From positions 139,400,173 to 139,464,172 of the forward strand of contig CP092863.1 of assembly GCA_030710605.1 (NCBI GenBank): a DNA stretch of 64,000 nt. Reading direction: 5' to 3'. A program made the translations under genes and the position numbers. The notes beneath the pieces were generated by a model, which saw only the letters and a list, made by a program, of their open reading frames with translations, did no database searches and had not been told where the DNA came from. The DNA comes from Cordylochernes scorpioides (taxonomy: Eukaryota > Arthropoda > Arachnida > Pseudoscorpiones > Chernetidae). Positions 23,401 through 26,400 of the stretch are shown here, piece after piece. Each line of letters opens with the position of its first letter. Within the stretch, counting starts at the first letter, position 1.

Positions 23401-26400
23401 TTAGTCTTATTACCTTGTATTTATAATCTACTAGACGGGTGACCCGGGCTTCGCCCCGGGATTGACCCGTGTGCATATCTACCCGTACAAAAGCTACATA
23501 CCTATGCTTTCGATATTTGCGGACCTATAATGAGGTATTGTTAACAATAGATTATTTAAGGAGCGACCCGCTCCAACACAATAGTTACAAAAACCAAAAA
23601 GCGAGTGGGGGGGGGGGGGGCATGATGGGGGGGGGGGGGGGGGGCAAAGGTGGCATGATCGTAGCCAACCAATAGGAGAGCGCCATTCCAAAAAAAAAAA
23701 GCAAATGGTGACAGAGATGAAGAATTATTAAGAACGCATGACGCTCGTAACTGTATATAGAATAATCCAAATTGTGACTTTTCGTTTAGAGAATAAAAAC
23801 ATTTACTAGGTGAAGTATTTATAAATTCTAAGAATCAATTTCAGTAGTTGAACTATTGTCTACTTGGCGGTTATACTCAAGCTTTATTTAAAAAAAAAAA
23901 AGAATCTTTATTGAATTATCTTTTTTTTTTTATATACAAGGTAACAACACCGACAAATAATTAGATATGCTATTGTGATAAACAAATGGCAAAAAAATAA
24001 AAAATAAAAACACTATTTCAGTATATCATATTGTAGCAAAGTATTTATTATATTTTATGTACATATTATAGATGGAAATTTTGCCGGGAGGTAATTAATC
24101 TAAAGAGACAAGGGTCGCCTCTCCCGTCAAAATAGACGTCTAAAACCAGATGGTCGGTGGAAGGCTGGTTAAACCGTTTGGTTTTCGACCACCACGACCC
24201 GGGTTCGATTCCCGCATTGGACAGTTTTATTGTTTAAAAAAAAAATAAATAAATAAAAAAATGCTTCAATGGCCCCCGATTCTTGCAAAAGTCCAACCCC
24301 ACCAGCGAGTGCAAGTAACCAAATGGGGCTCTGGCACATTTGTAAGTGCAAAGTCGAACTGCTTTCACATGTGTAGACATGTGGTGCGCTTACAGTAAAA
24401 AGAGCAGTCGCTAACTACCCACCATGATTATCATGGCCTGTACCACGTGTACTAGGGATAAGCAAAAAAAAAATGATGCCATCTATTGACCGTCGCCACA
24501 ACTAGCGGCCTTGGGTCGGTGACAAAGCCACAACACCAGCTTTGGCAAACTGAGAAGCGTCCACCACTGACGAGGGCCATTAGCCCGAAACCATGGTCTT
24601 TAGGTGGACGCTTTTCAGTTTACCAAAGCTGGTGTTGTGGCTTTGTCACCGACCCGAGGCCACTAGTTGCGGCGACGGTCAATAGATGGCATCTGGTTTT
24701 AGACGTCTATTTTGATGGTAGAGGCGACCCTTGTCTCTTTATACATATTATTATTTTTGATATTTATATTATTTATATTTTTCTAACTCTGGAAACTTCC
24801 CTCATTGTTTATCTTATAAATGTTGATTTTGTGCTTGACTTAAATAAATTACCGTTTTATTCTGAAATTTGTGTGTTTTTCCTAATTTTCTATGTTACAA
24901 TATAATTGAGAGGTAGAAGAGACTCTAAGTAAAGAAACATGTCTGTCAGGATTTTCTAACCTTGAATCTTCTATTCCATTGTTAAATGTGTGCTACATGT
25001 CAAATTGCTTATATAAAATACACTCATGGACAAAACATTAAGGAAGTTATACCTTTTAGAATGTATATCGGGATTCAGACAATAACTCTGAAATAATAGA
25101 GTATATGATGATAAACACAATTTGGAATTTTGTTTAAAAACACAAGTTAATAAGACCAAATCCAAATAAATAAATATTGGATTTGGTCTTATTACCTTGG
25201 GAATATTTTACTCTTTTGTCTGATGATGGTAACAATGCTATTACCAAAACGTCATACATTATTAATTTATTTGGATTAGGTCTTATTTTCTTGTAGCTAT
25301 AATCTTTTTTAATTCTTTTGTTTTATGATGGTAACAGCGCTGTTGCCTAAGTCACAAACTATTAATTTATTTGGATTAGATCTTATTTTTTTGTAGTTAT
25401 AAAACTTAAGGTAGGTATACCTTTTAGCATGTACAGTAGAACTACCTCCCTGTAAAGAACACCTAATTGCAGAACCAAAGTGTCCTTTAGGGAGAAGTGT
25501 CCTCTTACCAGAGAGTTGCCTAAATAATTAAAATGGTATTGATAAGGCACAATTTGGATTATAGATTATAAACACAAGGTAATAAGACCAAATCCAAATA
25601 AATAAATAGTGTGTAACGTTTCGGTAACAGCGTTGTTACCGAAACGTCACACACTATTTATTTGGATTTGGTCTTATTGCCTTGAATTAAAATGGTAATT
25701 TCACAAATGAAAATTGTCCTTTGTAAAGAGGTGTCCTCTAGCACGAGTGTCCTCTCATGGAGGTTCTACTGTATATAGGGATTCAGACAATAACTCTATA
25801 ACAATAGAGTAGGGGGTCGGTGGAAGGATGGTCTAAACCGTTGGTTTTCGACTGCTACGACCTGGGTTTGATTTTTCTGATTAAAAAAAAAAAAAGCTCC
25901 AATGGCCCCTGATTCTTGCAAAAGTCCAACCCCATCAAAGAGTGCAAGTAACCAAACGGGGCTCTGGCACATTTGTAAGTGCAAAGTCGAACTGCTTTTC
26001 ACATGTGTAGAAATGTAGTGCATTTGCAGTACTAGTAGTCGCTAACTACCCACCATGATTATCATGGCCTGTACCACGTGTACTAGGGATAAGTAAAAAA
26101 TAATAATAATAAATAAAAAATAACAATAGAGTATATAGAAGAGGTAAAAATGTGAATTTTACTGGGGACATATGTAAAGTAGTTACCGTTAGGTTTGCTA
26201 TCAGCAGATGGCACAATCTCCGGACTTCGGCAAACATCTGGACTCTCTGTCCCAGCGGAACTTGTACCGTCGCCATGTGGATGGTAGGCTGTCCCCCCAT
26301 TGGTGGTTCCTCTCTCGTCAAACTCTGCAATGATCTGGAAACAACACACCCCATTGGTTAGTCAGTAACCTATAGAACAGGGCAGTACCTAACAAAGTAC

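What the first reader, a model, noticed from the sequence alone, without database searches (positions are those of the whole stretch)
24557..24611. Apparently complete hammerhead ribozyme at the apex of a long palindrome
Every conserved core position is present: CTGACGA, stem II GGGC/GCCC, GAAA, U16.1-C17. Stem I pairs GCGTCCACC with GGTGGACGC and continues far into the arms. Stem III is minimal and self-complementary (ACCATGGT), as known for Penelope-element hammerheads that cleave as dimers. Hammerheads in arthropod retroelement repeats are established, but this family with such an extended stem I may be undescribed.
Basis: partly seen in the sequence, partly recalled or inferred. Interest (0 to 1): 0.85.

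Follow-up and report, generated by a model that had tools for sequence, protein, structure and literature searches.

The report
Mirror-image insertion of ribozyme retroelement
The hairpin with a self-cutting-RNA motif at its tip is one of many mirror-image insertions of a small non-coding retroelement (a retrozyme), and the way its copies end looks like the work of Penelope-type reverse transcriptases, which hints at what enzyme moves such elements in animal genomes.

Summary
The motif is real: all hammerhead core positions lie at 24567-24598, at the apex of a long palindrome. But this copy is not a complete ribozyme: its stem I 5' strand is the inverted arm, not the ribozyme's own, leaving a UUA bulge beside the core. 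Other copies carry an intact type I hammerhead in a 320-nt unit: 29 of 40 best copies of an HHR query, the window copy being one of the 11 without. Covariation over ten chosen hammerheads of two families supports the fold; no Rfam hammerhead model hits this family. In that sample 28 of 40 copies are head-to-head inverted. Their outer ends fall at two unit positions, u~145 and u~178, one of each in 26 of 27 non-duplicate inverted copies, counting L108 on a short segment and not compound L101. Target duplications of ~9 bp are enriched. Published Penelope hallmarks match: two RT start sites, ~31-bp one-sided tail, both DNA ends extended. Penelope elements of this genome show one tailed end in 5 of 5 inverted pairs read by eye. 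Best reading: a retrozyme moved by Penelope machinery. Cleavage and circular RNA untested.

The parts
24060..24068 (.). left target-site duplication TACATATTA (its last bases overlap the aligned start of the arm)
   Evidence: identical to 24742-24750; AT-rich, so weak alone
24067..24150 (-). outer left arm, unit u177->u95 (tail-bearing end)
   Evidence: circular alignment to the 320-nt unit (slice starts at 24001)
24152..24472 (+). tRNA-like SINE inserted later into the left arm (ends approximate); second copy near 25815-26103
   Evidence: direct repeats D1, D4, D9, D16; the arm continues on both sides of it
24469..24565 (-). inner left arm, unit u103->u5; supplies the false 5' strand of stem I
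   Evidence: inverted repeat I1
24566..24598 (+). hammerhead core, stems II and III, U16.1-C17; begins at u288, own stem-I 5' strand missing
24599..24741 (+). right arm, unit u1->u143 (tail-less end); u1 is the base after the predicted cleavage site
   Evidence: nhmmer 24560-24739 E 8e-60
24742..24750 (.). right target-site duplication TACATATTA
35269..35640 (+). copy of the same family in one orientation, slightly more than one unit
   Evidence: nhmmer E 2e-94 for 35317-35636 and a weak hit 35269-35313; sequence
13496..13750 (-). older copy with re-paired stem I (CCTGGA/TCCAAG)
61742..61971 (.). second fold-back copy in the window (- then +)
   Evidence: nhmmer hits 61858-61742 and 61859-61971; sequence

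Best explanation
24067-24741 is a head-to-head (fold-back) insertion of a 320-nt non-coding retrozyme, later hit by a SINE. The family's unit carries a canonical type I hammerhead. Inferred life cycle: transcripts are cut by the hammerhead and probably circularised; a Penelope-type RT/GIY-YIG endonuclease cuts AT-rich DNA and uses both broken ends as primers, one starting at u~178 (tail) and the other at u~145 (no tail), often running more than once round the unit; the two cDNAs are joined at variable inner points. Here the join fell at u5/u288, deleting the ribozyme's own stem-I 5' strand, so this copy is probably a poor or dead ribozyme. Shown by sequence: family, unit, fold-back, two preferred end positions, enriched target duplications, coexisting Penelope elements with the same end pattern. 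Inferred: cleavage, circles, Penelope protein acting in trans, dual priming.
For: 40 scored copies of the palindrome (4733 first-look candidates) and 40 of the unit (7864 candidates). HHR-query sample of 40: 28 inverted, 12 in one orientation. Ends, classed after seeing the data as S (u120-160) or T (u163-215): one search gives 26 ST and 1 undetermined (L108) of 27 non-duplicate inverted copies; L108 becomes ST with a segment scoring 20; L101, counted ST, proved compound on the full locus, so 26 of 27. Other sets, exact duplicates removed: 31 of 35 ST, 4 undetermined; 23 of 25 ST, 1 SS (L063), 1 undetermined; the sets overlap the sample in L001=window, L024=L095 and L026. Target duplications: 36 of 51 score 8 or more against 22.9% of 2550 mismatched flank pairs; with only exact duplicates dropped 37 of 60 against 19.9%. 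Flanks 77% AT next to inserts, 67% at 60-100 nt. The two arms of one insertion share non-consensus variants 0.267 against 0.113 when re-paired, P 0.0005, 26 loci. 46 of 67 arms cross the predicted cleavage site, 1 stops at it (L101). Penelope: 146 GIY-YIG matches from 150 scored (17015 candidates); L146 holds two inverted 590-aa RVT_1+GIY-YIG frames; one tailed end in 5 of 5 pairs, by eye. Papers: PMC11167929 (two of four parts read), PMC3846280 (passages). Hammerhead: covariation score 0.513 against 0.199 in shuffles, 0 of 500 as high.
Against: No Rfam hammerhead hit for this family even at E<=10 in short stretches. No RNA data. The unit shares only chance-level matches with 15 GIY-YIG loci, so the mobiliser is inferred from end structure alone. 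L063 and part of L101 break the end rule; L107's T end lies at u208 and L116's S end at u131. PMC11167929 saw no difference in RT start between top and bottom strands, and found the Penelope hammerhead not needed for insertion in vitro. Shared variants could come from one source locus rather than one RNA. Long arms fit circles but also multimeric transcripts. Two of the five covariation measures are weaker (14 and 72 of 500 shuffles as high).
Confidence: 0.8

Rival explanations
1. Self-priming: one cDNA folds back on itself and is copied, making the second arm (proposed for Penelope head-to-head repeats in PMC3846280).
For: Join points of the palindrome-query set cluster at complementary positions: the two coordinates sum to 612 with SD 7.7 against 14.1 when re-paired, 34 loci, 0 of 5000 as tight; that set was chosen with a palindromic query, so this is biased.
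Against: It does not explain why the second outer end is also at a preferred place (u~145 or u~178) and differs from the first. In the HHR-query sample join points lie all over the unit.
Confidence: 0.2
2. A stand-alone active hammerhead with an extended stem I.
For: All core positions present; long stable helix.
Against: Stem I broken by a 3-nt bulge after one pair; 5' strand belongs to the inverted arm; intact copies look different.
Confidence: 0.08
3. A non-autonomous DNA transposon (fold-back element or MITE) with terminal inverted repeats.
For: Long inverted repeats and short flanking duplications.
Against: Inner joins and arm lengths vary; 12 of 40 copies have no inversion; 24 of 40 have an arm of 320 nt or more, i.e. 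a full turn; the two ends differ by the ~31-nt tail.
Confidence: 0.04
4. A small-RNA hairpin precursor (miRNA or siRNA source) kept for that role.
For: Very stable hairpin; sub-threshold miRNA-model hits (MIR2600 51.5 bits, gathering 98).
Against: Such hits follow from any long hairpin; the other copies are insertions with different joins.
Confidence: 0.04

Closest known systems
Metazoan non-LTR retrozymes (PMC7229834: parts 2 and 3, Discussion and term passages read)
   Same: Small non-coding repeat of a few hundred bp with a type I hammerhead with weak stem III; thousands of copies in several animals; Penelope elements in the same genome, which that paper names a strong candidate mobiliser.
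   Different: Described there as tandem repeats; in the ten passages shown 'invert' occurs only inside 'invertebrate' (11 occurrences counted). Here most sampled copies are head-to-head inverted with two preferred end positions.
Penelope-like elements (PMC11167929: two of four parts read; PMC3846280: passages)
   Same: Inverted repeats, ~31-bp optional tail at one of the inverted repeats, 8-10-bp target duplications, AT-rich targets, two adjacent RT start sites, both target strands extended in vitro.
   Different: No long frame (longest stop-free stretch 68 codons in the tripled unit); one tailed plus one tail-less end is nearly strict here, whereas the papers call the tail optional.
Rfam Hammerhead_HH9 (RF02275) and Hammerhead_1 (RF00163)
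   Same: Second family of this genome (L148-L151) matches HH9 at 29-34.8 bits, E 3e-4 to 5e-6.
   Different: Below gathering (52); the window's family gives no hammerhead hit; best Hammerhead_1 match among 74 scored places of the genome is 30.5 bits, cut-off 34, and 11 of 14 control genomes also ring below the cut-off.

Membership tests
Type I hammerhead ribozyme (the family's unit) | CUGANGA...GAAA...UH core inside three stems, open at stem I | tested here: met
   full motif inside the unit in 29 of 40 HHR-query copies and 31 of 39 unit-query copies, but 10 of 39 palindrome-query copies; covariation
Type I hammerhead ribozyme (the window copy) | continuous stem I next to the core | tested here: not met
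   one pair, then a 3-nt bulge
Type I hammerhead ribozyme | match to a curated covariance model | tested here: not met
   no hammerhead hit; sister family 2 matches HH9 below gathering
Type I hammerhead ribozyme | self-cleavage of RNA | not testable with these tools
   needs transcription assay
Metazoan retrozyme | non-coding unit of about 150-450 nt with one hammerhead | tested here: met
   320-nt unit, longest open stretch 68 codons
Metazoan retrozyme | head-to-tail repetition of the unit | tested here: inconclusive
   24 of 40 copies hold an arm of 320 nt or more, the longest 603 nt, i.e. partial tandems; no long array was found, none was searched for
Metazoan retrozyme | linear and circular RNA in tissues | not testable with these tools
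   no RNA data
Mobilised by Penelope-type machinery | two adjacent 3' ends about 31 nt apart (tail) | tested here: met
   ends cluster at u~141-152 and u~176-183
Mobilised by Penelope-type machinery | inverted repeats with short target duplications in AT-rich DNA | tested here: met
   duplications enriched, not seen in every copy
Mobilised by Penelope-type machinery | autonomous RT+GIY-YIG element with the same end rule in the genome | tested here: met
   five pairs chosen because they were inverted pairs; RVT_1 checked in L144 and L146 only
Mobilised by Penelope-type machinery | shared recognition sequence with a given Penelope element | tested here: inconclusive
   only chance-level matches of the unit to L133-L147; other Penelope families not examined

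The most novel reading that the evidence does not exclude
The fold-back is the normal product, not an accident: one Penelope RT dimer holds one hammerhead-processed circular RNA, fires once from each of two start sites 31-33 nt apart, each start extending one of the two target DNA ends, and both cDNAs run round the same circle. Retrozymes would then be the natural circular-RNA substrate of Penelope enzymes, and the one-tail rule a direct read-out of the two active sites.
Probability: 0.4. Interest if true: 0.78.

Novelty: new variant of a known kind. Interest (0 to 1): 0.6.

Why it matters
Which enzyme moves animal retrozymes is left open in PMC7229834 (Penelope elements 'a strong candidate'). 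The pair of preferred ends, the tail on one side only and the inverted structure tie this family to Penelope machinery by structure, and give a simple prediction (one cDNA from each start site, one per target strand, on one RNA) that a published in vitro Penelope assay can test. It also explains how hammerhead motifs can appear at tips of genomic palindromes without being working ribozymes.

Tried and rejected
Rfam scans: no hammerhead hit for this family; one search was aimed at the wrong stretch and redone. The join-position sum in the palindrome set looked like self-priming at stem I, but that set was picked with a palindromic query and the HHR-query sample does not show it, so I do not lean on it. 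Exact search for a 26-nt hammerhead stretch in viral contigs: 0. Shared sequence between unit and GIY-YIG loci: nothing beyond chance. TTAGGG x5: 0 matches; TTAGG x6: 748 overlapping matches, those listed inside C1, not at a contig end; the species was not identified. Rows dropped before counts: one search used 53 of 66 loci with two arms (13 set aside: nested, interrupted or duplicated) and still held two duplicate pairs; one search repeats it with 51 and with 60 of 66 (only exact duplicates dropped). One search checked duplicates by flanks: L012/L013, L017/L018, L032/L038, L041-L043, L088/L089 share both flanks; L111/L112 share one flank and mirrored joins.

Papers: searches listed no paper whose title or abstract joins retrozymes with inverted insertions or the Penelope tail. 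I opened PMC7229834, PMC7761336 (passages), PMC11167929 (two parts) and PMC3846280 (passages); the rest were seen as listings. Subscription papers are not held, so this is weak evidence of absence.

Full report
What is there. The window lies in a 2.62-Gb genome of 24 contigs. TTAGG arrays occur (748 overlapping matches; those listed lie in one array inside C1) and TTAGGG x5 has no match; this is only a hint of an arthropod, and the species is not known to me. Core plus stems II and III at this site is well above chance (4 sites in the window against 3 in 100 Markov windows), but the site fails once four stem I pairs are asked for.

The family. The palindrome has 40 scored copies of 4733 first-look candidates, and the copy at 35300-35720 has 40 of 7864; true copy numbers were not counted. 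Aligned copies give a 320-nt unit, which I number u1-u320 from the base after the predicted cleavage site. The hammerhead is GTCC-GC-CCTAGA CTGACGA GGGC CATTA GCCC GAAA CCATGG T C^ TCTAGG-T-GGAC: type I, with an internal loop in stem I and a two-base-pair stem III closed by palindromic CATG (or three pairs and two bases). By descriptor it is intact inside the unit in 29 of 40 HHR-query copies, 31 of 39 unit-query copies, but only 10 of 39 palindrome-query copies. A second family, 350-nt unit, tandem in L151, carries a related hammerhead that Rfam HH9 matches below its gathering score. Ten hammerheads of both families, my choice, show covariation: score 0.513 against 0.199 in shuffles (0 of 500 as high) and 0.035-0.094 with the partner slid; two other measures are weaker (14 and 72 of 500). 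Three of the ten (L148, L149, L145) came from searches that reward pairing, which favours the result.

The window copy. Circular alignment reads 24067-24150 as minus u177->u95, 24469-24565 as minus u103->u5, and 24566-24741 as plus u288->u143. A SINE (about 24152-24472) interrupts the left arm. TACATATTA flanks the whole (24060-24068 and 24742-24750). The inner join u5/u288 removes the ribozyme's own stem-I 5' strand and puts the inverted arm in its place: hence the 'extended stem I' and the UUA bulge. This copy is best read as a chimera with a probably weak or dead ribozyme; activity was not testable.

How insertions are built. So as not to choose palindromes, I searched with 91 nt of hammerhead and adjoining unit and examined all 40 scored copies (8, 15, 15, L026 and the window in hand). 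They are the 40 most similar to that query, so young copies are favoured. 28 are inverted, 12 are in one orientation. Outer ends cluster at two places: S, u~141-152, and T, u~176-183. I fixed the class limits (S u120-160, T u163-215) after seeing the data. Of 27 inverted copies after removing one duplicate (L112), labels 26 ST and one (L108) undetermined because its S-end segment scored 20; with that segment L108 is ST. L101, counted ST there from a cut slice, is compound on the full locus: an ST insertion abutting a part that alone would be T/T. So 26 of 27 follow the rule, L108 in and L101 out. L107's T end lies at u208 and L116's S end at u131. In the two biased sets, exact duplicates removed, 31 of 35 (4 undetermined) and 23 of 25 (1 undetermined, L063 SS) are ST; they overlap the sample in the window, L024/L095 and L026. 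Inner joins differ from copy to copy. Target duplications: mean score 9.0 against 6.2 for mismatched flanks, 36 of 51 at 8 or more against 22.9%; with only exact duplicates dropped, 37 of 60 against 19.9%. AT-rich flanks make single cases weak. The two arms of one insertion share non-consensus variants more than arms of different insertions (0.267 against 0.113, P 0.0005, 26 loci), as do two passes within one arm (0.333 against 0.127, 20 arms). So the two arms come from one RNA or one source locus. 46 of 67 arms cross the predicted cleavage site and one, in L101, stops there; 24 of 40 copies hold an arm of a full turn or more. The template was thus mostly continuous across the site: circular, or not cut.

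Link to Penelope. PMC11167929 (two of four parts read) reports that a Penelope protein cuts AT-rich DNA, extends both strands, and starts RT inside the RNA at two adjacent sites whose spacing corresponds to the 30-40-bp 'tail'; it saw no difference in start site between strands and no need for hammerhead cleavage in vitro. PMC3846280 (passages) describes inverted repeats, a 9-bp target duplication and a 31-bp tail at one of the inverted repeats, and favours self-priming. Here the S-T spacing is about 31-33 nt. In the same genome PF01541 gives 146 matches from 150 scored (17015 candidates). I took five close inverted pairs; L146 has two inverted 2455-bp arms, 98.9% identical, each with a 590-aa RVT_1 plus GIY-YIG frame; RVT_1 was also found in L144, the other three pairs were not scanned but share the end sequence. 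In 5 of 5 pairs, read by eye, one outer end carries a ~35-bp tail and the other does not; in L143 the tail-less end stops some 15 nt short of the others. Duplicated flanks of 12-14 bp are seen in L143, L144 and L147; in L145 the flank is an AT run and in L146 a longer local repeat. Family 2 shows one S and one T end in three inverted copies with both ends clear (L098, L145, window 46460-46675); L035 (169 and 155) is unclear, L002 and L055 have other arrangements, L083 and L093 are cut by the locus end. No common recognition sequence was found between the unit and loci L133-L147, of which L133-L142 were not all checked for RT.

Reading. I conclude that the element is a retrozyme moved by Penelope-type machinery and that the fold-back arises because both target ends prime on the RNA at two sites, one each. 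Self-priming remains a rival (0.2): it explains palindromic joins but not two preferred, different ends. The membership claim 'hammerhead' holds for the family by core and covariation, not by Rfam model, and not for the window copy's stem I. Cleavage, circles and action of the Penelope protein in trans are inferred.

Novelty. Animal retrozymes and Penelope tails are both known. In the library searched no listing described retrozymes inserted head-to-head with a one-sided tail (searches), nor the near-strict one-tail rule; most papers were seen as listings only and subscription papers are not held.

Noticed in passing
window 46460-46675 and 38089-38173; L148-L151: A second retrozyme family (350-nt unit, hammerhead TCCACG CTGACGA GCGC..GCGC GAAACGCGTT CGTGGA); the copy at 46460-46675 is inverted and nested inside a copy of the first family (46330-46820).
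   Followed up: partly
window 1594, 7316, 12972, 16384, 26458, 26514, 27434, 53224: A repeated CTGATGATGGTAACAATGCTGTTACCGAAACGTC-like motif, resembling (from memory) the minimal hammerheads of Penelope elements; 18 CTGANGA..GAAA matches in the window against 4.5 expected.
   Followed up: no
window 13380-13401: CTGAAGAAGGGCTTGCCCGAAAGCTT, another minimal hammerhead-like motif next to an old copy of the first family.
   Followed up: no
window 24152-24472 and 25815-26103: A tRNA-like SINE in two copies 1.6 kb apart; one sits inside the palindrome arm.
   Followed up: partly
L133, L138: Frames with a GIY-YIG domain near their start, unlike the C-terminal GIY-YIG of L146; possibly a Penelope group with permuted domains (from memory).
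   Followed up: no
L012/L013, L017/L018, L032/L038, L041-L043, L088/L089: Loci sharing both flanks: duplications of one insertion, with the same or nearly the same joins, so joins look stable after insertion.
   Followed up: partly
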